Source: JBBIVP01 sp037439705 [NCBI: bacterium] (GTDB taxonomy: Bacteria; JBBIVP01). From it: a stretch of DNA of 15,299 nucleotides. The notes under the pieces are model-generated. The model was not told the DNA's origin. It ran no database searches and saw only the letters and a list, made by a program, of their open reading frames with translations. A program made the translations under genes and the position numbers. Shown here one piece after another: positions 1 to 15,299 of this stretch; the first letter of the stretch is position 1; each line of letters opens with the position of its first letter. The stretch lies in assembly GCA_037439705.1 (NCBI GenBank), contig JBBIVP010000029.1, positions 1 to 15,299 of the forward strand. The letters are read 5' to 3'.

Positions 1-189
1 TCTTAGCTTCTTCTATTTCTTTTGACAATTTTTCAATTGTTCTATCTTTCTCATTTATTTCCTTCTTAGCTTCTTCTATTTCTTTTGACAATTTTTCAAT
101 TGTTCTATCTTTCTCATTTATTTCCTTCTTAGCTTCTTCTATTTCTTTTGACAATTTTTCAATTGTTCTATCTTTCTCATTCATTTTAT
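1..189. repeat. 63-bp tandem repeat (three copies, continues off the left edge)
   Basis: Three head-to-tail copies lie at 1-63, 64-126 and 127-189. Copies one and two are identical. Copy three differs from copy one at three positions, all in its last eight bases. The unit is exactly 21 codons of the minus-strand methyltransferase/coiled-coil gene, which is three heptads, so gain or loss of a copy keeps both the reading frame and the heptad register. In each unit Ile occupies the same position of all three heptads. The identity between copies points to recent duplication or gene conversion. The number of further copies beyond base 1 is unknown. Confidence 0.97.
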
Positions 190-1279
190 TTTTAACTTTT
201 TCTAATTCCTCTGCGAATTTTTTAACAATTTCTTCTTTTTCTTCTATTATCTGTCTTTGCAGAAATGAACGCTCCTCGTCCAATTTTTTCCGTTCCATCC
301 TTTCCGTTTCAACTTGAGCGCACAATTTCTTCAGTTCTGGCTCGTTTGCCCAAAAATCATTTCTTATAACATTAGCAGATTCAGTTTTTGCAAGAACTTC
401 ATTCTTATATTGGGGCTTGCGAATGAGCACAAGGACAAGGTCATCCAATGTGCTCATAGGAATGAGCTGGTTGAACTTTTTAGAACTCATGTGAAGGAAA
501 AGGCTCTCTTCACCTGGAACAAAGAAGAAGTTTATCTCCTGGGCACTTCCGAAGATGTTTTTTTCGTTTTTGAAGAAGTTATCAGGATTATAAGCCTCTA
601 AACAATGAATAAAAGGTTTATAACCCTTCTTTTTCATAATTCTCACCAGGCGGGTTCCATGTTCCATTGAGAGGCATTCTGCATATACAAGCGGACGAAA
701 ATGCTCCAGAATGCTATCACTTCCTTCAATAATTTCACTCTCCATACCTTCAGCATCAATTTTTATGAGCCTGCATTTTTGCAATTTAAATTCATCAAGA
801 GGAACTACCTCAACTGCTATTCCGGAAGATTCGTTTTGATTCATACCGCTCTTCCCAACAAGGGAAAATGCTCCAGGGTTATCCTTTAATTCTGATGAAA
901 ATTCACTAATCTGTAGAATTTTTTTCCCCTTCCCCAGTGCAACATTTAAGATTCTAACATTCGATAGGTCATTTTGTCTTATATTCATTTCTAAAACCTT
1001 ATAAGCAATGGGATTTGGCTCAAAAGCATAGACTAATCCACTTTCTCCTACATGGCGGGCAAAAGCAATGGTATGTGTTCCTATGAAAGCGCCTACATCT
1101 ACAACAATATCCCCTTTTTTAAGGAAATCCAGAAGGAAATCTATTTCCTGTTGTGCCCATTCACCATATTCTTTCAGCGAGCGTCCAATTATCATATCTG
1201 ACTTAAAATAGGAAATCATCCCATACCGCCAGGATTTAGTTTCCAGCAATTCAGCAAAGTTTACTTTTTCTAAAACCAT
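1..1279 (-). CDS. FkbM-family methyltransferase with C-terminal repetitive coiled coil (partial, 3' end off window)
   Basis: The frame is open from the ATG at 1279 to base 1 (426 codons seen). Residues about 45-200 form a class I SAM-dependent methyltransferase of the FkbM type. The SAM-binding motif I is VDVGAFIGTHT (residues 60-70), the acidic end of strand 2 is AFEPNP (85-90), and the family's LIKIDAEGMESEI segment is at 171-183. A linker follows to about 310. From there to the window edge the chain is a Lys/Glu-rich coiled coil, which becomes an exact 21-residue repeat from about residue 366. FkbM enzymes O-methylate sugars or polyketides and often sit in polysaccharide loci, so a glycan substrate is inferred, not shown. 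An in-frame TGA 17 codons upstream and no other ATG, GTG or TTG between fix the start. No Shine-Dalgarno lies at normal distance; a GGGAG is 15 nt away. The gene follows ispG on the same strand after 52 bp. More domains, for example a glycosyltransferase, may follow the coiled coil. Confidence 0.9.
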   Translation of the reverse strand, partial: MVLEKVNFAELLETKSWRYGMISYFKSDMIIGRSLKEYGEWAQQEIDFLLDFLKKGDIVVDVGAFIGTHTIAFARHVGESGLVYAFEPNPIAYKVLEMNIRQNDLSNVRILNVALGKGKKILQISEFSSELKDNPGAFSLVGKSGMNQNESSGIAVEVVPLDEFKLQKCRLIKIDAEGMESEIIEGSDSILEHFRPLVYAECLSMEHGTRLVRIMKKKGYKPFIHCLEAYNPDNFFKNEKNIFGSAQEINFFFVPGEESLFLHMSSKKFNQLIPMSTLDDLVLVLIRKPQYKNEVLAKTESANVIRNDFWANEPELKKLCAQVETERMERKKLDEERSFLQRQIIEEKEEIVKKFAEELEKVKNKMNEKDRTIEKLSKEIEEAKKEINEKDRTIEKLSKEIEEAKKEINEKDRTIEKLSKEIEEAK

Positions 1280-1331: not shown

Positions 1332-2393
1332 CTACCATTCCTCCACAATTTTCATTACTTCCTTGATCAAATTTTTTGGTTCAACTTTTTTGAACTTTTT
1401 TCCTTTAATGTACAGGAGGAATGAGTTCTTTCCGCCGACAATTCCTATGTCTGCAAATTTTGCCTCTCCGGGACCATTCACCACACATCCCATAACAGCA
1501 AGAGTGATTGGTTTTTTAATAAATAGTGTTCTTTTTTCAATCTCATCCGCAATTTTCTGGACATTCACCTGACATCTTCCACATATAGGGCAGGCAATTA
1601 CCTTTACTCCCTCAAATTTTTTCAGTCCGAGGGAATTCAATATGTAGATTCCAGCAAGAACCTCAAATAATGGGTGGGTTGGTAGGGAAACCCTTATTGT
1701 ATCACCTATGCCTTTTGATAGGAGGATTGTCAATCCAACTGCAGACCTTATGCTTCCTGAGAATGATGTTCCTGATTCGGTGATTCCTGTGTGAAGCGGA
1801 ACATCCGTTTCAGAGGAAAACAGGATGTTTGTTGATACTGTTATAATTGGGTCAGTAGATTTTATTGAAACCTTGAAGTTTTTGAAACCGAGCTTATTTT
1901 CCAGAAAATCAGTCCATTTTTTTGCACTGAATGATAGGGCGGGAGGTGAAGGACTCCCGAATTTTTCAAGGACTTCTTTTTCAAGTGAACCAGCATTTAT
2001 TCCTATTCTCAGGGGGATTCCGTAATCCTGTGCTTTTTTAACTATCATTTCAACGAATTTTTCTCCTCCGATATTTCCGGGATTTATCCTCACACAATCA
2101 GCACCTGCTGAGATGACATCAAGGGCGAGTCTGTAATTGAAATGGATGTCTGCAACAAGTGGAATAGGAGAGTTCTTTTTTATCCATTCAAATGCTGAGA
2201 TTGCTCTTTCATCAGGGACTGCAAGCCTTATTATCTCACATCCTGCTGAATGGCACTTTTTTATCTCCTCAAGAGTCTTTTTCCTGTGGTGGGTAAATGT
2301 TTTTGTCATTGTCTGAACCGATATTGGCGCATCACCGCCCACAGGAACATTTCCAACGAAGATTTTTCGTGTTATTCTTCTTTTTATCTCCAT
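1332..2393 (-). CDS. ispG: 4-hydroxy-3-methylbut-2-en-1-yl diphosphate synthase (IspG/GcpE)
   Basis: This is the cytosolic iron-sulfur enzyme of the MEP isoprenoid pathway. It reductively converts methylerythritol cyclodiphosphate to HMBPP. The 353-residue length is that of the compact bacterial form, without the plant-type insert. The N-terminal TIM barrel shows PVGGDAPISVQTM (residues 17-29), LVADIHFNYRLAL (79-91) and CVRINPGNIG (100-109). The [4Fe-4S] ligands are visible in the C-terminal domain: Cys268 and Cys271 in CPIC, Cys303 in MGCVVNGPGE, and the family's glutamate ligand Glu310. The Cys271-Cys303 spacing of 32 fits the Aquifex-type enzyme. The start ATG at 2393 overlaps the end of the lipoprotein gene by 10 bp and has a good AAGGAAGGA Shine-Dalgarno, so the two genes are probably translated from one mRNA. 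All key residues are present, so the protein should be active. Confidence 0.97.
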   Translation of the reverse strand: MEIKRRITRKIFVGNVPVGGDAPISVQTMTKTFTHHRKKTLEEIKKCHSAGCEIIRLAVPDERAISAFEWIKKNSPIPLVADIHFNYRLALDVISAGADCVRINPGNIGGEKFVEMIVKKAQDYGIPLRIGINAGSLEKEVLEKFGSPSPPALSFSAKKWTDFLENKLGFKNFKVSIKSTDPIITVSTNILFSSETDVPLHTGITESGTSFSGSIRSAVGLTILLSKGIGDTIRVSLPTHPLFEVLAGIYILNSLGLKKFEGVKVIACPICGRCQVNVQKIADEIEKRTLFIKKPITLAVMGCVVNGPGEAKFADIGIVGGKNSFLLYIKGKKFKKVEPKNLIKEVMKIVEEW

Positions 2394-3478
2394 CTCTCAA
2401 ATCCTTCCTTTAATGCGTGGTAACCGGGTTTTTTTGTTCCATCAGGTCTTATCACTCCCCAGAATGGTTCAACCTCCTGAAGACCCTTTATTTCCTCTTT
2501 TTCTGATGTGATAAATGTAAAATATAAAAATCCAGTTCCTCCGTTTTCAAATGTAGAATCAATGGCATCCCTTATGTATATTGCCTGATTTTCTTCAGAA
2601 AATTTTCTTTTTGGGGGAGAAGTTGGATACCCTGTTTCAAGAACGATAACCGGTTTTTCAGGGAAGAGGCGAACTGTTCTTCCAACCCTCTTTCCAACCT
2701 CTCTTCCATAAGTAGGTTCACCTATTAAGTAGTTCGGATATGCATCAAGTCCTATTATGTCAAGGTATCCATACCATCTTTTTATATCATTTATAAAATG
2801 AAGGTCTGTGTGAAAGTTGTGTGTTGTTTTTGCTTCAGGGTCTTCCTCCTTTACGGCGAGATAGAGAGATTTTATGAGCGAATCAAGAAATTCCCAGTCA
2901 CACCATGCATCTCCTTCCCTCCATCCCCAGGCAACAGTTTCGCATGCCACATTTAGTTCGTTTTCTATCTGCCAGATTTTTACAAAATTTTTTAACCTTC
3001 TAACTGCAATTTTTGCAAAGGCATAATTCAGGTCTATGTATCTCTCCCTCCCAACAATATCCGGATACGCCCTTTTGCCGGCTTTTTCCTTCATACAACC
3101 TTCTTCTGAAATAAAAGGCAAACTTCCATTATACCCCACTCCGATAGCCCCTATAATTGATATTCCGCTTTTCTTTAAGGTTTTTAAGGTTGTCTCAATG
3201 AGAGACCAGTCTCCTTTTTCAAATTGATTAAACGAGTCTTCACACGGGTCTATTTTTTCTTTAACAGCAATAATTGGAATTGCCATTCTAAACCAGTCCG
3301 CTCCAATTTCCTTTAATTCCTTTGCAAATAATTCTGTTTTTTCCTCCTGATTTTCTCCCTTTATAACTTCGGGATACCATGGACCTCCTCCGCTGAATCC
3401 GAGAATTCTCTTTTTTTCCTCACCGCAGGAAAGAAAAAGAAGGAGGAAAATCTGAAGGAAAATTTTTCTCCACATCAT
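2384..3478 (-). CDS. lipoprotein with TIM-barrel glycoside hydrolase-like domain
   Basis: The product is 364 aa from the ATG at 3478, or 363 from the adjacent ATG at 3475. It begins with MMWRK, a hydrophobic stretch and FLSC, a plausible lipobox with Cys18 as the lipidated residue, so it is probably anchored in an envelope membrane and faces the periplasm or surface. The rest resembles a clan-A (beta/alpha)8 glycosidase. A strand ending in IWQIENELN gives a candidate acid/base Glu174, VIVLETGYPTS gives a candidate nucleophile Glu281, and LDIIGLDAYPNY lies between them. This is the usual order and spacing for GH5/GH53-like enzymes; I cannot assign a family or substrate. The open frame extends to 3586, but the extra 36 residues overlap the preceding gene and lie before the signal peptide, so I exclude them. 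The start lacks a clear Shine-Dalgarno, and a TTG nine codons upstream is an alternative. It sits 32 bp after the coiled-coil gene and overlaps ispG. Confidence 0.75.
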   Translation of the reverse strand: MMWRKIFLQIFLLLFLSCGEEKKRILGFSGGGPWYPEVIKGENQEEKTELFAKELKEIGADWFRMAIPIIAVKEKIDPCEDSFNQFEKGDWSLIETTLKTLKKSGISIIGAIGVGYNGSLPFISEEGCMKEKAGKRAYPDIVGRERYIDLNYAFAKIAVRRLKNFVKIWQIENELNVACETVAWGWREGDAWCDWEFLDSLIKSLYLAVKEEDPEAKTTHNFHTDLHFINDIKRWYGYLDIIGLDAYPNYLIGEPTYGREVGKRVGRTVRLFPEKPVIVLETGYPTSPPKRKFSEENQAIYIRDAIDSTFENGGTGFLYFTFITSEKEEIKGLQEVEPFWGVIRPDGTKKPGYHALKEGFERWR

Positions 3479-3510
3479 TCTGTTGAAGAACTTTTTTGAT
3501 ACCAAAAACC

Positions 3511-4026: not shown

Positions 4027-4539
4027 ATGAAAAAATTGAGCTTTTTTGGGTTAATGGTTTTATTTTTGCCAGTTTATTCTATTGCAGAAACAAAAAAAAT
4101 TGGATATGTGGACATGCAGGCTGTTCTTCTCAAATCCAAGGCTGGAAGGGATGCAAAGGCTATTCTTGATAAAGAAAAAGAGGAGAAGAAGTCAACTCTT
4201 GACAAGATGAAAGAAGAGATTGAAAAATTGCAGAACGATATATCCAGGCAGAGCCTCGTTCTTACAGAGGAAAAGAGGAAGAAGATGGAGGATGAACTGG
4301 CAGTGAAGAAGCAGAACTTTTTGAAACTTCTGCAGGATTATGAAATGGAACTTCAGAAGAAAGACCAGGAGTGGACGGAAAAAATTTTGAAGGAAGTGGA
4401 AAAGGTTATATACAAAATAGGTAAAACAGAGGAATACGACATGATCGTTGAAAAGTCATCGGTTCTTTATGCCCCTGAGTCCTACGATATTACCGATAAG
4501 GTGATAAAGGAGTATGACAAAACCTATTCAACAAAATGA
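4027..4539 (+). CDS. ompH: OmpH/Skp-family periplasmic chaperone
   Basis: This 170-aa protein matches the OmpH/Skp family in size and layout. It has a Sec signal peptide with likely cleavage at SIA/E (after residue 20), the family's first strand KKIGYVDMQAVLLKS (residues 23-37), a long charged helical hairpin rich in Lys and Glu (about 40-135), and a closing strand segment around EEYDMIVEKSSVLYA. Skp trimers hold unfolded outer-membrane proteins in the periplasm on the way to the BAM complex. The start has AAGGAGG 5 nt upstream. The gene often lies between bamA and lpxD; here lpxD follows with a 26-bp overlap, but no bamA lies upstream, where a divergent promoter region is found instead. Family assignment is secure; chaperone function is inferred from family. 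Confidence 0.93.
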   Translation: MKKLSFFGLMVLFLPVYSIAETKKIGYVDMQAVLLKSKAGRDAKAILDKEKEEKKSTLDKMKEEIEKLQNDISRQSLVLTEEKRKKMEDELAVKKQNFLKLLQDYEMELQKKDQEWTEKILKEVEKVIYKIGKTEEYDMIVEKSSVLYAPESYDITDKVIKEYDKTYSTK

Positions 4540-5515
4540 AAAAACCCTTAAGGAGATAGCAGAACTCTTTAAGGGAAGGGTTGAAGGCGATGGTGAGAAA
4601 ATCATAAAAGGGGTGAATTCCCTTGACGAAGCGGGAGAAGAGGATATTTCTTTTCTCTCAAATCCTAAGTATATTGAGAAGGCAAGGAATTCAAAGGCCG
4701 GAGCCATCCTCGTTCGTGAGACCGAAGGGCTTGAAGGAAAAAATCTGGTGATAGTGGATGACCCATATTTAGCGGTTTCCATTCTCCTTGATGAATTTTA
4801 TCCTTCAAAGAAGGAGTTTGAGGGGATAAGTTCACTTGCTTTCATCCATCCATCAGCCTCCATCGGTAAGGGCGTGTCGGTTCTTCCATTTTCTTACATA
4901 GGTAAAAACACAAAAATAGGTGAAAATTCTTTCATAACTTCACATGTATATATCGGAGACGAGGTGGAAATTGGAAGGGAGTGCATTATATATCCGATGG
5001 TTTCTATCTATTCTTTCTCTTCAATTGGTGAGAGGTGCATCATTCACTCAGGTGCTGTGATAGGCTCGGATGGATTTGGATATGCCTGGGATAAAGACCA
5101 TTACAGAAAGATCAATCATATTGGAATGGTTGTGATAGAGGATGAGGTGGAGATAGGTTCAAACACAACAATTGACAGAGGAACATTCGGTGAAACAAGG
5201 ATTGGAAGGGGAACAAAAATTGACAATCTCGTTCAGATAGGGCACAATGTAAAAATTGGGAAAAACTGTATAATAGTAGCACAGGTGGGAATTTCTGGAA
5301 GCACAGAAATAGGTGATAATGTCATGATAGGAGGACAGGTAGGAGTCGTCGGGCATATAAAGATAGAGGACGATGCGAAGATAGGAGCAAAATCAGGGGT
5401 TCACAGGGATTTGAAAAAGGGCGAGATTGTGAGCGGAATTCCTATTCTTCCTCATAAAGAATGGCTGAAACTCAACCTTATATTTCAGAGGCTTCTTAAG
5501 AAACAAGAATGGTAA
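4514..5515 (+). CDS. lpxD: UDP-3-O-acylglucosamine N-acyltransferase (LpxD)
   Basis: LpxD adds the second 3-hydroxyacyl chain (amide-linked) in lipid A synthesis, using acyl-ACP in the cytoplasm. The 333 residues show the expected order. The N-terminal uridine-binding domain contains TLKEIAEL (11-18), GVNSLDEAGEEDISFLSNPKY (33-53) and a stretch ending in FIHPSASIGKGV. A left-handed beta-helix of hexapeptide repeats follows (about 110-310), with GSDGFGY at 184-190 and the general-base histidine His244 in QIGHNV. A helical tail (WLKLNLIFQRLLKKQ) closes it. The ATG at 4514 lies inside ompH and AGGAG is only one base before it, so translation probably depends on ribosomes finishing ompH. No other ATG, GTG or TTG starts in frame before the conserved TLKEIAEL. 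The stop overlaps lpxA by 7 bp. Confidence 0.96.
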   Translation: MTKPIQQNEKTLKEIAELFKGRVEGDGEKIIKGVNSLDEAGEEDISFLSNPKYIEKARNSKAGAILVRETEGLEGKNLVIVDDPYLAVSILLDEFYPSKKEFEGISSLAFIHPSASIGKGVSVLPFSYIGKNTKIGENSFITSHVYIGDEVEIGRECIIYPMVSIYSFSSIGERCIIHSGAVIGSDGFGYAWDKDHYRKINHIGMVVIEDEVEIGSNTTIDRGTFGETRIGRGTKIDNLVQIGHNVKIGKNCIIVAQVGISGSTEIGDNVMIGGQVGVVGHIKIEDDAKIGAKSGVHRDLKKGEIVSGIPILPHKEWLKLNLIFQRLLKKQEW

Positions 5516-6288
5516 AAATTGACCCAAGGGCAATCGTTTCTCCTGAAGCGGATATAGGTGATGGCTCTCAGATAGGACCCTTTGCAATCGTGGAAAAAGG
5601 AGCAGTTATTGGAAGAAATTGTTCCATAGGTGCTTATGCCTGTATCTACGGAAGGGTGATTATGGGGAACGACAATGTAGTTTATCCCCATGCATCAATT
5701 GGTGCTGAACATCAGTTTTTGAGGTTTAAGGAGCATCAAGGAGAGGTTATAATTGGACACAGAAATGTATTCAGAGAATTCGTAACAGTTCATCCGGGAA
5801 CACCAGAGGGAGATAATAAAACGATAATCGGAGATGACAACTACTTTATGATAGGAGTTCACATTGCACACGATTGCAGGATAGGGAACAGAAACATTTT
5901 TGCTAACCTTACTTCATTAGCGGGATTTATTGATGTCCAGAACGATGTCAATTTTGGAGGTATGTGCGGAATCCATCAGTGGACGAGAATAGGTTCATAC
6001 GCCATGATTGGAGGGGGGACGATGGTTACGATGGATATACCTCCATTCTGTCTGGCTGCTGGCAACAGGGCAGAACTTCATGGCATCAATGAAATTGGAC
6101 TGAAAAGGAGAGGATTTGAAGCGGAAAGAATTTCAAAACTCAAGAAAGCTTACAAAATTCTATTTTTAAGCGGTTTTTCTCTTGAGGAAGGGCTAAAAAG
6201 GGTTGAGGAACTTGGAGGAGAGGATGTGAGTTTATTAGTCCAGTTCATAAAAAATACAAAAAGGGGAATCCTCCCTGCGGCAAGGTAA
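5509..6288 (+). CDS. lpxA: acyl-ACP--UDP-N-acetylglucosamine O-acyltransferase (LpxA)
   Basis: LpxA catalyses the first step of lipid A synthesis, moving a 3-hydroxyacyl chain from ACP to the 3-OH of UDP-GlcNAc. Its 259 residues are the typical length. They comprise hexapeptide beta-helix coils from the start to about residue 180 and a helical C-terminal domain beginning near GLKRRGF. The catalytic motif HIAHDC carries His118 and the general base His121 (His122/His125 in E. coli). HQW aligns with the E. coli HQF, and the residue aligned with E. coli Gly173, which sets acyl length, is also Gly, suggesting that long (about C14) chains can be accepted; that is inference by alignment. The ATG overlaps lpxD and has only a weak Shine-Dalgarno, again suggesting coupling. 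fabZ and lpxC, frequent neighbours in other phyla, are absent. The next gene starts one base after the stop. Confidence 0.96.
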   Translation: MVKIDPRAIVSPEADIGDGSQIGPFAIVEKGAVIGRNCSIGAYACIYGRVIMGNDNVVYPHASIGAEHQFLRFKEHQGEVIIGHRNVFREFVTVHPGTPEGDNKTIIGDDNYFMIGVHIAHDCRIGNRNIFANLTSLAGFIDVQNDVNFGGMCGIHQWTRIGSYAMIGGGTMVTMDIPPFCLAAGNRAELHGINEIGLKRRGFEAERISKLKKAYKILFLSGFSLEEGLKRVEELGGEDVSLLVQFIKNTKRGILPAAR

Positions 6289-6289
6289 A

Positions 6290-7069
6290 ATGGAGAAGGT
6301 GATTTTTGAAAAAAGGGATGGAATTGGATGGTTGTGGATTAATCGTCCAGATGTCAGAAATGCCATTGATAAAGAAACTGCAATAAGGATGAGGGAAATA
6401 ATACTCTCTTTCCATAAAGATAGAGATGTTCGCCTCCTTGCCATATCTGGAAAGGGAGATAATTTTTCATCCGGGGCAGAGCTCAAAAAGGAAGATGGTG
6501 TTGATGGAGTATCAGGTTCCCATGAGGTTAGAATAAGGAGCATTTACCAGGGAATAATTCTTGCAATAAGGGACTGTCCGAAACCGGTAGTGGCACTCGT
6601 TAAGGGATATGCTGTTGGTTTTGGATGCGATATCGCTCTTACCTGCGATTTGAGGCTTGCATCAAGAGATGCAAAATTTTCGGAAATTTTTGTTTCCCTT
6701 TCCCTTGTTCCGGATGGAGGAGGCTCTTATAACCTTCCAAAAATTGTAGGTCTGGGAAGGGCACTTGAACTTATGTTTACCGGAAGGTTTGTTTCTGCTG
6801 ATGAAGCCCTTTCAATGGGACTTGTGAATGCAGTATACGACGATGAGGCTTTTTATTCCTCCACAGAAAAATTTCTTAAAGAGATAGCGGAAAAATCTCT
6901 TTTTGCCCTTGAAAGAATAAAAAGGGCTGTTTATTCATCCATTCATGAGAATTTTATTGAATCCCTTGTTAGGGAAGCAAAATTTCAGGAAGAATGCATT
7001 CTTAACGAAGATTTCAAAATCAAGTTAAGGGAATTTTTTGAAAAAAAGAAAGGAGGAAAAGGTGCTTAA
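6290..7069 (+). CDS. enoyl-CoA hydratase/isomerase (crotonase) family protein, PaaG-like active site
   Basis: This 259-aa protein is a full-length crotonase-fold enzyme. The two oxyanion-hole segments are clear: NFSSGAEL (58-65) and GYAVGFGCDIALTCDLRLAS (106-125). The two glutamates that define true enoyl-CoA hydratases are not kept: the first position is Asp114, the second falls on a hydrophobic residue. Instead VPDGGGS (140-146) places Asp142 where PaaG-type and delta3,delta2-enoyl-CoA isomerases carry their catalytic Asp. I therefore expect a double-bond or epoxide isomerase-like reaction on an acyl-CoA rather than hydration. It starts one base after lpxA and overlaps rmlA by 8 bp, so it is co-expressed with lipid A and sugar-nucleotide genes. 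A role in shaping acyl chains for lipid A is possible but unproven. The substrate is unknown. Confidence 0.88.
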   Translation: MEKVIFEKRDGIGWLWINRPDVRNAIDKETAIRMREIILSFHKDRDVRLLAISGKGDNFSSGAELKKEDGVDGVSGSHEVRIRSIYQGIILAIRDCPKPVVALVKGYAVGFGCDIALTCDLRLASRDAKFSEIFVSLSLVPDGGGSYNLPKIVGLGRALELMFTGRFVSADEALSMGLVNAVYDDEAFYSSTEKFLKEIAEKSLFALERIKRAVYSSIHENFIESLVREAKFQEECILNEDFKIKLREFFEKKKGGKGA

Positions 7070-8135
7070 GGGGCTTATACTTTCAGGAGGAAAGGGGACG
7101 AGGTTGAGACCTATAACCTATACATCGGCGAAGCAGTTGATTCCAATTGCAAACAAGCCTGTTCTCTTTTATGGAATTGAAGCACTTGTTGAAAGCGGAA
7201 TTACGGATATTGGAATTGTGGTCGGGCATACAAAGGATGAAATAATGGAATGTGCGGGTGATGGTTCAAACTGGGGTGCCCATTTTACCTACATATATCA
7301 GCCAGAACCACTCGGACTTGCCCATGCGGTTATGATATCAGAGGATTTTATAAAGGATTCTCCTTTTGTTATGTATCTTGGAGATAACCTTATTCTGGGA
7401 GGAAAAAAATCCCTTGTGGAGGATTTCAAAAAAAGCAATGCCAATTCGTTCATCCTCCTTGCAAGGGTAAAGGACCCGAGGCAATTTGGAGTGGCTGAAT
7501 TAAAGGATGGAAGGGTGGTAAGGCTTGAGGAGAAACCGAAGGAGCCAAAAAGCGACCTCGCTCTTGTTGGCGTTTACATATTTGATAAAAACATCTTCAA
7601 GGCTGTAGAAGAGATAAAGCCTTCATGGAGGAATGAACTGGAGATAACAGATGCAATTCAATGGCTCGTTTCAAACGGTTATGATGTCCGTCCTCACATA
7701 GTTAAAGGGTGGTGGAAGGATACAGGCAAACTTGAGGATTTGCTGGAGGCGAACAGAATGGTTCTTGATTCCTTTGATGTGGAGGTGGTAAACAGGGGGA
7801 AAATAGATTCTTCATCAGATGTTCAGTTCAAGGTTGTAATTGAAGAAGATGCGGAAGTGAAGAACAGCACAATTCGTGGTCCTGCAATTATTGGAAAAAG
7901 GACAAAGGTAATAAATTCATATATAGGTCCATTCACATCTATTCATGACGATGTCTGGATTGAGAACTGCGAGATAGAACATTCAATTGTTCTTTCAGGT
8001 TCAAGGATTGTGAATATACCGGGCAGAATTATTGACAGCCTCGTGGGAAAGAATGTTTCCATTTCGACCGAAGAGAAATCTCCAAAGGCTCACAGGTTTC
8101 TTCTTGGAGATCACAGCAAGGTTGTGATAAAGTAA
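7062..8135 (+). CDS. rmlA: glucose-1-phosphate thymidylyltransferase, long form
   Basis: RmlA makes dTDP-glucose from dTTP and glucose-1-phosphate, the entry step to dTDP-rhamnose and other dTDP-deoxysugars. I choose the GTG at 7062 (357 aa) because AGGAGG ends 5 nt before it and the protein then begins directly with the nucleotide-binding strand. A further in-frame ATG at 7038 would only add eight charged residues lying inside the crotonase gene. The nucleotidyltransferase motif SGGKGTRLRP is at 8-17, AKQLIPIANKPV follows with Lys24, and the metal-binding Asp is at YLGDN (Asp108). After about residue 245 a left-handed beta-helix tail with isoleucine-rich hexapeptides (IEEDAEVKNSTIRGPAIIGK) marks the long form rather than the 290-residue short form. 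The rml order here is A-C-B-D. Confidence 0.94.
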   Translation: MLKGLILSGGKGTRLRPITYTSAKQLIPIANKPVLFYGIEALVESGITDIGIVVGHTKDEIMECAGDGSNWGAHFTYIYQPEPLGLAHAVMISEDFIKDSPFVMYLGDNLILGGKKSLVEDFKKSNANSFILLARVKDPRQFGVAELKDGRVVRLEEKPKEPKSDLALVGVYIFDKNIFKAVEEIKPSWRNELEITDAIQWLVSNGYDVRPHIVKGWWKDTGKLEDLLEANRMVLDSFDVEVVNRGKIDSSSDVQFKVVIEEDAEVKNSTIRGPAIIGKRTKVINSYIGPFTSIHDDVWIENCEIEHSIVLSGSRIVNIPGRIIDSLVGKNVSISTEEKSPKAHRFLLGDHSKVVIK

Positions 8136-11766: not shown

Positions 11767-11813
11767 GAAATTTAAAATTTCGCTTGACAGATGTTTTCTT
11801 TTTTTGTTAAAAT
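11767..11813 (+). promoter_or_regulatory. strong sigma-70-type promoter with AT-rich palindrome just upstream
   Basis: A perfect -35 TTGACA (11784-11789), an 18-nt spacer and TAAAAT (11808-11813) form the best promoter match in the window. Directly upstream, 11767-11781 is a perfect inverted repeat (GAAATTT, one base, AAATTTC) in a position where an A/T-rich UP element or an operator would lie. A start near 11820 would give a leader of about 95 nt for the large secreted protein. Together with the AGGAGGTG ribosome binding site at 11903-11910 this suggests high expression; that is inference. Confidence 0.65.
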
Positions 11814-11879: not shown

Positions 11880-11915
11880 TTAAACTATATAAAAAAACAA
11901 AAAGGAGGTGTCAAG

Positions 11916-14900
11916 ATGAAGCGATTGTGTGAAGTGCTTGTAGCGGTAGGAGTTGTTCTCCTCGCAGCAAATCTCTATGCGCATACCACAATCCAGAAGG
12001 GACCTCAGCTGCCATCAGCAACAGGCAACCTTCAGTCAGACTACGGAAGATCCTATGTTGACCTTGAGCCAACCATAATGGGGGTGAGGCTCACAAATGC
12101 GGGTCTTGACTATCTGGAAAGGCTGATAAACGATGTGCTTCAAGACCCCAATCTCCTTGAATATGTGGATTGTATTGTCAAAGGGATGCTTGATGCAGAC
12201 ACAGGAGATGGAACCGATGAGGTTGAGTGGAACCTCCAAACGGATTCCTGCGATGATACAGGAGGGCGGTATGACCCTGGAGCCGTTCTTGAGCCTACCT
12301 GTATCTCTGTCCCGATTGTTGGAAGCTTCTGCCTTATGCTTCTGGTTATGGATGACCCACTTGATACAGGAGATAGAATATTGGAATGGCACATTAATAC
12401 TACAACTAACATAGGGGATGATTTTCCAAGGCTTGATTTTGTTCCTGATACGAGGACGAACAAGATTCTTCGTTATGCTGGTGAATCAGATGCAGCACAC
12501 GATTACGATGACTCCCTTGATTTGAGGATTTACATAGCAGATATAATCCTTGATACAGTTTTTACAAATCCAACCCCAATCACAACCCCCCAGTATCCAT
12601 CAGCAACATCAGATACCTGCTCATCAACCCTTCAGGATGGCCCAGCATGCCTTGGAGATGCAACCTGCGGGGAGCAGGATGTCCAGGATTACTACGACCC
12701 AGCAACAGACATATCAAACTATGTAAATGCATGGGCAAGGCTTGTTATTGGTTGCTATGACGGACCAACAGCTGGACTTGACCCTGCTGAACAGATTGCA
12801 GAAGACCTCTGTTCAGGCACACAGGCACCACTCATTCTATCAACATCAATAAGGGCTGGTCTTTCCTATGATGATAGAACACACATAAATTATTCTGCAG
12901 ATGATGGCTCTCCTGATTCGGGCGCATGGTGCGACCCTGATAGGGACGCAGATAACGATTTTGGCTTAAACGGATGCCATTTAAAGGCACTTGATGTGAA
13001 CATTGCTGGTTTAGACCTCTATGCAAATGTTTATTTTCAATTTGACAGGAACGCTAACAGGGTATGCGCAACCTGTCCTGATGTATTTGGTGATAGGGTG
13101 GGTGATGGATTGACTGAATTTACAGGTAATCCAGGCCCTTCAAGCTGTTGTGGTGCAGCTAACAATGACTGCTCTACATTTTCTACGGAGGTGAAGGCTT
13201 TCTGTGACAGGAATGGAAACGACCTCTGTAATGATCCTTACGATGACCCGAATTACAATCCTACACAGCAGGTAGCAGGACTACTTCCATTCCTTGAGGC
13301 ACAGGTAATGGCAAGGCTTCAGGATGTATTCACATGCGATTGTTTATATGGAACATTCCCTGGTGGAAACGATGGAGATATATGCACACCAGATACAAAT
13401 GAGTGCGTAAATCCACAGACAGGACAATCAAGGGCAGGAACAAATGCCACCTGCGGTGATGAGGATTATCCTGCAAATGACCCTGGTTGCGTTGGTTATT
13501 ACCTCGCATCAACATTGAGAATGAACCTATCACCAACCCTTGACACAATATCCTTTGATCACCCACTAACCTCTGCAACAGACCCGATATACATAGATGC
13601 TGGAATAAGAACAGATATGTGGGCAGATTCGGTTGGCGTTCTTCTTCCAGGAGACCTCGGTCTTGACCTTTATTATACCTGGAATGGAGGAACAGAAACC
13701 GCACCAAACCTTGAGCCAATGACATCTTGCGTTACCCTTCAAACATTTGCTTCACCACAGTACACTGGACCAATCACACCCGTTGTATCTGAGCTCTGCT
13801 ATGATCAGAGGTACTTCAACCTTCCTGGATATTCCTGTACAGTAACAGAGATGACAACAGGTGTTGAAGGTTCTGATGAAGTATTTAATTCAGACCAGGC
13901 AACTGCTGAGTTCAAGCCATATAAGGTCAATCCTCAGCCCGCAACAACAAACGCATATACATATCACCTCGGTCTCGGAATCCATCACAACTTCTTCTCA
14001 AGGGCTATAACATCTATTATAAAATCAGGTGCTCTTTGCCTCACAATAAACGGAAATACTCCAACTATTGGGGAATTTATAACAGGTATACTCAATACAG
14101 GAACATTCGGTCTTCTTATGCCAAAACTTTCAGAGATATACGGTGATGATAATTATATGGAAATAAGGCTCGTTCCATCCTTCAAGAGACCAGAGCCCGC
14201 AGATTATGGTCCTGACTTTGAAACAGCATTCCCACCACAAACAACTGGTCCTCTTACACCCTTCTCCGATAAAATTGGGGATGTTCCATTCATACTTACT
14301 GGTGGATATTCAATAGCAGTCTTGAACCCAAACTATCCTCAATTCCCAACAGCTGTAACAACAGATACAGCGGACCTGACAGTTGGAATTCCTCACTTAA
14401 GACTCGACTTCCATGTGGTTGATGATGTAGGAGATGCAAATAGGGCATTCGGTCTTGACTTCGGAATGCTACTCGGCGTTGACCTTGAACTATTAAGGGA
14501 TGATTCAGCATTTGATCAGAGAACATTCCCGGGCGGTATAACAATGGTAACCGGTAGAATTATACATGCTGGTGTGAGCCTCTCATCAGCAGTTAACTAC
14601 TACCTTGAATACTATGAGGCACTTTCAGGACTTGGAAGACAGGATCTCAATTCAATCCTTTCAAACCTCATCCCAACAATACTTTCAATGGCAATAGGCT
14701 TAACAGCGGACATCGGACTTGACCTCGGAGCAGTCCTTCCTGTTCCACTGACAATAAGGACGGTTGATGATGGCGTATGCACAGGTCCAAACCAGGCTGC
14801 TAACCCTGGACAGACCTGTCCAGCTGCATCAATCCTTCCATACGGACCTGCGAGACCATTGATGCCTGGCAGCGCAATCACATGGAATGCACCCCTTTAC

Positions 14901-15299
14901 ATGCTATCAGGAACAAATGGTGGGCTCGTTGAAATAAAGGCAACAGACTTCAACCTCATCAATCCCTCTGACTGGCTTGGAATCTTCTTAAGGCTTGAAG
15001 GAAGACTGAATGCTCTTGCACTTATTGAGATGCTTGAGGGAGGTATACTTGATAGTCTCCTTGGAGGTCTTGGTTTGAGCCCGTCTGCTGGATTCGATGG
15101 CTTCAATCCACCAGAAACAAGGATAATCCCTGCTGAAAAACTATCCGCAATGGATGCGGGATTTGTCTTTGATGCATATGATGATTATGATACAGGCGAT
15201 ACAGTGAGATATGCATGGAGGCTTGATAAAGGCTTCTGGACACCATTCACAAACATAAGGAATGTTTCTTTCAGCCACCTCTATGAAGGAAATCACATC
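11916..15299 (+). CDS. large secreted Cys/Asp-rich protein, possible BPI/TULIP-like lipid-binding fold (partial, 3' end off window)
   Basis: The frame is open for 1128 codons to the window edge. A Sec signal peptide (charged start, hydrophobic core, likely cleavage LYA/H after residue 22) sends it out of the cytoplasm. The mature part holds 30 cysteines, is rich in Asp, Gly, Thr and Pro, and has few Lys, unlike its neighbours. Segments resemble BPI/LBP/CETP proteins in order: GVRLTNAGLDYLERLINDVL (56-75) like the first helix; LLPFLEAQVMARLQDVFTC (456-474) like the N-barrel's second helix with its cysteine; YHLGLGIHHNFFSRAITSII then KSGALCLTI (683-711) like the start of the C-barrel; and DLNSILSNLIPTILSMAIG (910-928) like its closing helix. 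Asp-rich loops (D93-E104, D340-D348) look like calcium sites. From about residue 1069 (YAWRLDKGFWTPF at 1099-1111) an Ig/FN3-like domain begins. The start has AGGAGGTG 5 nt upstream. Secretion is clear; the fold call is tentative. Confidence 0.85.
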   Translation, partial: MKRLCEVLVAVGVVLLAANLYAHTTIQKGPQLPSATGNLQSDYGRSYVDLEPTIMGVRLTNAGLDYLERLINDVLQDPNLLEYVDCIVKGMLDADTGDGTDEVEWNLQTDSCDDTGGRYDPGAVLEPTCISVPIVGSFCLMLLVMDDPLDTGDRILEWHINTTTNIGDDFPRLDFVPDTRTNKILRYAGESDAAHDYDDSLDLRIYIADIILDTVFTNPTPITTPQYPSATSDTCSSTLQDGPACLGDATCGEQDVQDYYDPATDISNYVNAWARLVIGCYDGPTAGLDPAEQIAEDLCSGTQAPLILSTSIRAGLSYDDRTHINYSADDGSPDSGAWCDPDRDADNDFGLNGCHLKALDVNIAGLDLYANVYFQFDRNANRVCATCPDVFGDRVGDGLTEFTGNPGPSSCCGAANNDCSTFSTEVKAFCDRNGNDLCNDPYDDPNYNPTQQVAGLLPFLEAQVMARLQDVFTCDCLYGTFPGGNDGDICTPDTNECVNPQTGQSRAGTNATCGDEDYPANDPGCVGYYLASTLRMNLSPTLDTISFDHPLTSATDPIYIDAGIRTDMWADSVGVLLPGDLGLDLYYTWNGGTETAPNLEPMTSCVTLQTFASPQYTGPITPVVSELCYDQRYFNLPGYSCTVTEMTTGVEGSDEVFNSDQATAEFKPYKVNPQPATTNAYTYHLGLGIHHNFFSRAITSIIKSGALCLTINGNTPTIGEFITGILNTGTFGLLMPKLSEIYGDDNYMEIRLVPSFKRPEPADYGPDFETAFPPQTTGPLTPFSDKIGDVPFILTGGYSIAVLNPNYPQFPTAVTTDTADLTVGIPHLRLDFHVVDDVGDANRAFGLDFGMLLGVDLELLRDDSAFDQRTFPGGITMVTGRIIHAGVSLSSAVNYYLEYYEALSGLGRQDLNSILSNLIPTILSMAIGLTADIGLDLGAVLPVPLTIRTVDDGVCTGPNQAANPGQTCPAASILPYGPARPLMPGSAITWNAPLYMLSGTNGGLVEIKATDFNLINPSDWLGIFLRLEGRLNALALIEMLEGGILDSLLGGLGLSPSAGFDGFNPPETRIIPAEKLSAMDAGFVFDAYDDYDTGDTVRYAWRLDKGFWTPFTNIRNVSFSHLYEGNHI

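What the first reader, a model, noticed from the sequence alone, without database searches (positions are those of the whole stretch)
11916..15299. Giant secreted bacterial protein with a candidate BPI/LBP-like (TULIP) two-barrel fold
Four short segments match, in the right order and roughly the right roles, the helix and strand landmarks of BPI-type proteins: an N-terminal GLDYLERLI-type helix (56-75), an LPFLEAQVMARLQDVF helix ending at a Cys (456-474), an HLGLGIHHNFFSRAI...SGALCLTI block (683-711) resembling the opening of the C-terminal barrel, and a late DLNSILSNLIPTIL helix (910-928). BPI/LBP bind LPS in animals. A diderm bacterium that places such a protein next to its own lipid A and O-antigen sugar genes, under a strong promoter, could use it as an extracellular or periplasmic lipid/LPS carrier. 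The match is by eye and could be convergent amphipathic patterning.
Basis: partly seen in the sequence, partly recalled or inferred. Interest (0 to 1): 0.75.

Follow-up and report, generated by a model that had tools for sequence, protein, structure and literature searches.

The report
Bacterial secreted protein resembling animal BPI
A large protein secreted by an unidentified bacterium carries, in the same order, weak but better-than-chance traces of the two-barrel lipid-carrier fold of animal immune proteins such as BPI, which would hint at a bacterial version of that lipid carrier, but its fold and function are not yet shown.

Summary
The ORF is real: 11916-15299 (+), 1128 codons, open at the window end, with a good ribosome site and a Sec-like signal peptide (by eye). 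The whole protein matched no Pfam or NCBIfam family at E<=10, no relative was found, and AlphaFold2 without relatives failed (pLDDT 31), so the fold is unproven. Yet a gap-tolerant chain alignment to a BPI+LBP+CETP profile beats chance: 0 of 2000 letter shuffles, 2 of 2000 block-30 and 6 of 2000 block-80 shuffles reach it, and none of 192 matched unrelated comparisons. CETP loaded with the same inserts scores somewhat higher. Strict gaps, CETP alone, each half against the whole protein and hhalign are not significant. The LPS-carrier idea is not supported: the protein is strongly acidic (53 K+R, 151 D+E), BPI's N barrel is basic, and a promoter-like site separates the gene from its neighbours. 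Bacterial two-barrel TULIPs are already predicted (DUF4403), but this protein does not hit that model. Best reading: a secreted BPI-like double-TULIP lipid carrier enlarged by Asp/Cys-rich loops; confidence 0.42.

The parts
11784..11813 (+). promoter-like site TTGACA-18-TAAAAT with TG before the second hexamer
   Evidence: 11 of 12 positions; 1 found, 1.2 expected in shuffles
11902..11909 (+). ribosome binding site AAGGAGGT upstream of ATG 11916
   Evidence: by inspection
11916..15299 (+). P0001, secreted protein of at least 1128 residues, cut off by the window end
11916..11981 (+). Sec-like signal peptide MKRLCEVLVAVGVVLLAANLYA (residues 1-22), no lipobox
   Evidence: by inspection; no signal-peptide program was run
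12081..12140 (+). residues 56-75, GVRLTNAGLDYLERLINDVL, candidate first helix of TULIP-N (56-69 against BPI 4-19)
   Evidence: loss 9.6, above all 20 control tiles
12987..13082 (+). residues 358-389, LDVNIAGLDLYANVYFQF..C..C, candidate TULIP-N strand (BPI 103-133)
   Evidence: loss 14.6, above all 20 control tiles
13269..13343 (+). residues 452-476, QVAGLLPFLEAQVMARLQDVFTCDC, candidate last helix of TULIP-N (452-472 against BPI 150-170)
   Evidence: loss 7.1, equal to the highest control tile
13512..13619 (+). residues 533-568, candidate start of the inter-barrel segment (533-556 against BPI 181-200); weak
   Evidence: loss 5.1, below the highest control tile
13956..14057 (+). residues 681-714, candidate opening of TULIP-C (BPI about 252-283)
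   Evidence: one search agrees only for 703-714; (loss 7.1, equal to the highest control tile)
14079..14180 (+). residues 722-755, with LNTGTFGLLMPKLSEIYGDDNYMEIRLV (BPI about 292-316)
   Evidence: loss 5.5, below the highest control tile
   Evidence: loss 0.3
15111..15299 (+). residues 1066-1128, looks like the start of an Ig-like repeat (RYAWRLDKGFWTPF...EGNHI), cut by the window end
   Evidence: recognised from memory; Pfam gave only a sub-threshold KdgM match there, E 0.015

Best explanation
P0001 is most likely an exported protein whose residues ~45-1040 form two tandem TULIP barrels in the BPI order (TULIP-N ~45-480, linker ~480-670, TULIP-C ~670-1040), enlarged by about 560 residues of Asp-, Gly- and Cys-rich loops, with an Ig-like stalk starting near 1066. 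Its two hydrophobic pockets would each hold a lipid, so that it carries or presents lipids outside the cytoplasm, perhaps at the cell surface. Shown: a signal-like N-terminus, collinear similarity beyond chance for residues 56-755, the acidity, native codon usage. Inferred: both barrels (the second above all), lipid binding, disulphides and calcium loops, the place in the cell.
For: Chain alignment to BPI+LBP+CETP: 0 of 2000 letter, 2 of 2000 block-30 and 6 of 2000 block-80 shuffles reach it; putting residues 641-1045 first drops it from 130.9 to 98.8. 0 of 56 unrelated proteins and 0 of 136 unrelated profiles reach its z values; an earlier set of 33 agrees. The N profile on the N part gives z 3.85/2.14, on the C part -0.74/-1.28; the C profile on the N part 0.58/-0.17. 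Segments 56-75 and 358-389 lose more than any of 20 control tiles when shuffled. Positive control: CETP with the same insert load scores z 5.1-6.9 (letters) and 4.4-6.8 (blocks) against BPI+LBP over three trials and two gap settings; P0001 there 3.9 and 2.6, or 4.4 and 3.0. That loaded CETP (one trial) keeps only E 2e-4 in a single HMMER comparison with this thin profile, P0001 0.05, so thin-profile and library scans can miss such a member; Pfam's deeper models may be more sensitive. HMMER and hhalign put their best local matches on the same order. Both alignments put Cys 419 and 490 opposite BPI Cys 135 and 175.
Against: No TULIP family hit for the whole protein or four fragments, though HMMER's filters drop most matches above E 0.1; no fold from AlphaFold2. 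Strict gaps give z only 0.5-2.6. Each half profile against the whole protein is not significant (N 0.86/0.48, C 1.25/0.15); C half on the C part 2.0/0.82; linker 1.58/1.32; CETP alone as profile -1.14/-1.35; with raw single-sequence profiles, a less matched null, the 78 unrelated ones reach 5.0 (letters) and 3.11 (blocks). LBP-loaded control scores far higher, z 40. hhalign: 4 of 60 shuffles reach the whole protein's score, 6 of 60 the N part's, 47 of 60 and 31 of 60 the two C parts'. Moving residues 773-1045 to the front leaves 127.6, moving the last 123 leaves 133.1; shuffling 773-1045 costs 1.5, so most of the C barrel has no sequence support. Eight gap settings besides the first were tried over (the one repeats one of these).
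Confidence: 0.42

Rival explanations
1. An unrelated large secreted surface protein, rich in Asp/Cys loops with an Ig-like C-terminus, whose amphipathic helices and strands fall by chance in the BPI order.
For: No TULIP family hit; no confident model; the signal depends on cheap long gaps and is missing from residues 773-1045; hhalign not significant; Asp- and Cys-rich make-up; the only weak hit over the tail is a porin model, KdgM E 0.015, below its cut-off.
Against: Block shuffles keep local helices and strands yet reach the score in only 2 of 2000 and 6 of 2000; 0 of 192 unrelated comparisons reach both its z values. The controls are proteins of one bacterium, mostly not large secreted ones.
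Confidence: 0.43
2. A bacterial-lineage TULIP, that is a far outlier of DUF4403 or a kindred two-barrel family, resembling BPI only through the shared fold; lipid carrier in the envelope.
For: DUF4403 is predicted to be a two-barrel TULIP, with BPI-N as its strongest eukaryotic match (PMC6791001, passages and section 8); P0001 comes from a bacterium with lipid A genes.
Against: No Pfam hit to DUF4403 (PF14356) at E<=10; more than twice its ~460 residues; no lipobox, while 66% of DUF4403 are predicted to be acylated. I had no DUF4403 sequence to compare with: none in the 6 records searched of 9 asked, nor in 14 control genomes.
Confidence: 0.1
3. An LPS-binding carrier working as BPI does, serving the neighbouring lipid A and O-antigen pathway.
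For: Neighbours lpxD, lpxA, rmlABCD-like and ugd on the same strand.
Against: BPI's first 200 residues have 28 K+R against 12 D+E, P0001 residues 40-480 have 22 against 77; LBP (23 against 21) and CETP (18 against 20) are near neutral, so charge alone speaks against the BPI manner, not against every lipid. Separate promoter-like site.
Confidence: 0.05

Closest known systems
BPI / LBP / CETP (PF01273 + PF02886; 1bp1, 4m4d, 2obd)
   Same: Order of helix and strand landmarks up to about residue 755, signal-like N-terminus, Cys opposite BPI Cys 135 and 175 in both alignments
   Different: No Pfam hit; about 560 residues of inserts; strongly acidic; bacterial; Ig-like tail (from memory); no sequence support for most of the C barrel
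DUF4403 (PF14356), predicted bacterial pseudo-dimeric TULIP (PMC6791001)
   Same: Would be an exported two-barrel TULIP of a bacterium with lipid A genes
   Different: No hit to the model; more than twice as long; no lipobox; Cys-rich. Sequences not compared
YceB / DUF1439 (3L6I)
   Same: Would share the TULIP fold
   Different: Single small barrel, often a lipoprotein (PMC5507252, PMC6791001); not compared here by sequence

Membership tests
BPI/LBP/CETP (PF01273, PF02886) | Score above the Pfam gathering cut-off | tested here: not met
   No hit for the whole protein or four fragments (only Lantibiotic_a E 0.48 and KdgM E 0.015 appeared, both below cut-off). Not filed as a member.
BPI/LBP/CETP (PF01273, PF02886) | Two tandem elongated barrels, each with a lipid pocket | tested here: inconclusive
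   Models without relatives have pLDDT 30.7 and 31.6
BPI/LBP/CETP (PF01273, PF02886) | Collinear landmarks of the N and C barrels | tested here: inconclusive
   Beyond chance over residues 56-755; absent for 773-1045; weak under strict gaps
BPI/LBP/CETP (PF01273, PF02886) | Disulphide between elements 5 and 6 of the N barrel (BPI) | tested here: inconclusive
   Cys 419 and 490 fall opposite BPI Cys 135 and 175 in both alignments, but residues 23-1128 hold 30 Cys, so chance is likely; that the BPI pair is 135-175 is recalled
BPI/LBP/CETP (PF01273, PF02886) | Basic N barrel used for LPS (BPI; LBP and CETP are near neutral) | tested here: not met
   22 K+R against 77 D+E in residues 40-480
DUF4403 (PF14356) | Score above the Pfam cut-off | tested here: not met
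   No hit at E<=10
DUF4403 (PF14356) | About 460 residues, mostly predicted to be lipid-anchored | tested here: not met
   Over 1100 residues, no lipobox by eye; family traits from PMC6791001
TULIP superfamily | Six-element barrel and beta-meander interface seen in a structure | not testable with these tools

The most novel reading that the evidence does not exclude
A bacterial two-barrel TULIP that shares ancestry with animal BPI/LBP closely enough to leave collinear sequence traces over the N barrel, the linker and the opening of the C barrel, enlarged with acidic disulphide-rich loops and an Ig-like stalk: an extracellular bacterial counterpart of BPI/CETP that would place the origin of the pseudo-dimer in bacteria.
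Probability: 0.28. Interest if true: 0.7.

Novelty: new variant of a known kind. Interest (0 to 1): 0.46.

Why it matters
Whether the BPI/CETP two-barrel pseudo-dimer arose in bacteria is argued but not settled in the TULIP papers I saw (PMC5507252, passages; PMC6791001, abstract, passages and section 8). A secreted bacterial protein with sequence-level traces of BPI itself, rather than only the fold, would be a direct lead. It would also add an extracellular lipid carrier to the envelope biology of an uncharacterised bacterium.

Tried and rejected
Relatives: genome contigs with P0001 and with IspG, viral contigs with P0001 and three fragments, phages with P0001 and plasmids with P0001 and two fragments gave no relative; fragment hits had E 2 or worse. 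The one hit of the whole protein, in an Aeromonas record (E 0.2 over the plasmid collection; E 5e-4 for that record alone), lies in an ORF that Pfam names a recombination directionality factor-like protein, E 1.7e-40, so it is a chance match. One search covered 6 of 9 records asked; besides that hit it gave two weaker ones, E 0.08 and 0.15. These pattern-based scans reach close relatives only. IspG gave no organism: 76 records, all under 60% identity, at most 47.8% among the 40 listed.

PF02886 and PF01273 were sought in one record and 14 control genomes without a match, which says little. PDB searches with P0001 and a 269-residue C-terminal piece gave nothing. The profile that includes P0001 returned the three families it was built from and two chance hits, so it is no evidence. 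Two AlphaFold2 jobs without relatives failed; I ran no fold search on models that poor. NCBIfam and Rfam gave nothing, PHROGs one hit at E 0.32.

Recent transfer from a eukaryote: not favoured. GC3 is 0.354 (12 neighbours 0.30-0.47) and AGA/AGG make up 37 of 40 Arg codons, as in most neighbours; the higher GC comes from codon positions 1 and 2.

Full report
What is there. The window holds an opposite-strand block (an FkbM methyltransferase, ispG, a weak glycosidase-like protein) and a same-strand run of skp/ompH, lpxD, lpxA, an enoyl-CoA hydratase, an rmlA-like nucleotidyltransferase, rmlC-, rmlB- and rmlD-like genes and ugd (ispG named). After a 166-base gap with a promoter-like site comes ORF 11916-15299, called P0001, 1128 codons, still open at the window end. 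ATG 11916 follows AAGGAGGT. Residues 1-22 look like a Sec signal peptide without a lipobox. This is by inspection; no signal program was run.

Is it in a known family? Pfam, NCBIfam and PDB sequence searches at E<=10 gave nothing for the whole protein. Pfam on four fragments gave nothing for the two barrel regions and two sub-threshold hits elsewhere, Lantibiotic_a E 0.48 and KdgM E 0.015. No relative was found in genome contigs, viral contigs, plasmids or phages. No whole genome is held for the window. Two structure predictions without relatives were useless, pLDDT 30.7 for residues 672-1045 and 31.6 for 28-1045.

Testing the BPI resemblance. I took BPI, LBP and CETP letters from the Protein Data Bank, averaged them into a profile and aligned P0001 with cheap long inserts, since P0001 is twice as long. 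The score is 130.9. It is reached by 0 of 2000 letter shuffles, 2 of 2000 shuffles of 30-residue blocks and 6 of 2000 of 80-residue blocks; putting residues 641-1045 first gives 98.8. Against the same profile, 56 unrelated proteins of 600 residues or more (from 40 stretches of one Aeromonas record, overlapping frames dropped) reach z 2.83 (letters) and 1.96 (blocks) at most, while P0001 has 4.49 and 3.66. P0001 against 136 unrelated profiles of matched depth reaches at most 2.56 and 2.85. An earlier run with 33 controls agrees, at most 1.97 and 1.90.

Where the signal lies. Shuffling one segment costs 9.6 for 56-75, 14.6 for 358-389, 7.1 for 452-474, 5.1 for 533-568, 7.1 for 681-714, 5.5 for 722-755 and 0.3 for 908-951. 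Twenty control tiles lose 0.2 on average, sd 2.7, at most 7.1. By region: 56-480 costs 23.4, 481-671 14.8, 672-772 9.6, 773-1045 1.5. Both alignments put Cys 419 and 490 opposite BPI Cys 135 and 175.

Positive control. CETP with the same load of shuffled inserts scores z 5.1-6.9 and 4.4-6.8 against BPI+LBP in three trials under two gap settings. P0001 scores 3.86 and 2.57 (4.35 and 3.02 under the second setting) there, and 2.75 and 1.90 (3.27 and 2.35) against BPI+CETP. LBP so loaded scores about 40 (letters). One loaded CETP keeps E 2e-4 in a single HMMER comparison, P0001 0.05. So a true member at CETP's distance would look a little better than P0001 and could escape a library scan.

Results against. 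With strict gaps z is 0.5-2.6. As single profiles BPI gives z 3.6/2.6, LBP 2.5/1.9, CETP -1.1/-1.4; each half profile against the whole protein is not significant; the C half on its own part gives 2.0/0.8; of 78 unrelated raw single-sequence profiles the highest z are 5.0 (letters) and 3.1 (blocks). hhalign of the whole protein has E 0.12, and 4 of 60 shuffles reach it; for the C parts 47 of 60 and 31 of 60 do. HMMER gives E 0.02 for one comparison. Moving residues 773-1045 to the front leaves 127.6. The second barrel is thus supported only by its opening.

Function. P0001 (23-1128) has 53 K+R, 151 D+E and 30 Cys; BPI's first 200 residues have 28 K+R and 12 D+E, LBP and CETP are near neutral there. 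LPS binding in the BPI manner is therefore unlikely. Several D-x-D type loops suggest, from memory of calcium loops, metal-stabilised loops, untested. GC3 and Arg codons match the neighbours, so the gene is at home in this genome.

Literature. TULIPs in bacteria were described as YceB, with two-barrel forms suggested but without evidence in 2017 (PMC5507252, passages). In 2019 DUF4403 was predicted to be a full pseudo-dimer like BPI (PMC6791001, abstract, passages and section 8). So a bacterial double TULIP is not new in kind. BPI-like proteins are also reported in diplomonads (PMC4967989, passages). Six searches of the held open-licence library listed no BPI-type protein of this size and make-up in a bacterium; I saw 13 of 13, 20 of 68, 20 of 3,903, 7 of 7, 21 of 21 and 1 of 1 titles, so this is a weak statement.

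Verdict. The resemblance is better than chance over residues 56-755, the fold is plausible but unproven, and the LPS-carrier function is not supported.

Noticed in passing
window 1-222 (protein 2-1279, - strand): The FkbM-type methyltransferase ends in a stretch of 63-base (21-residue) near-identical repeats, 3.5 copies, 93% matches, coiled-coil-like by eye, running off the window.
   Followed up: no
window 4027-7069: skp, lpxD and lpxA follow each other directly without fabZ between lpxD and lpxA; an enoyl-CoA hydratase gene follows lpxA.
   Followed up: no
window 7038-8135: The rmlA-like nucleotidyltransferase has a C-terminal extension with weak hexapeptide / left-handed helix matches.
   Followed up: no
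window 2384-3508, - strand: Weak glycosidase-like protein (Glyco_hydro_42 E 0.0016, Apiosidase E 0.009, both below cut-off); FLSCGEE looks like a lipobox by eye.
   Followed up: no
window, 13 genes: AGA/AGG make up most Arg codons in nearly all genes (10 of 18 in the FkbM gene), and IspG is at most 47.8% identical to the 40 listed plasmid-collection records, pointing to an uncharacterised lineage.
   Followed up: partly
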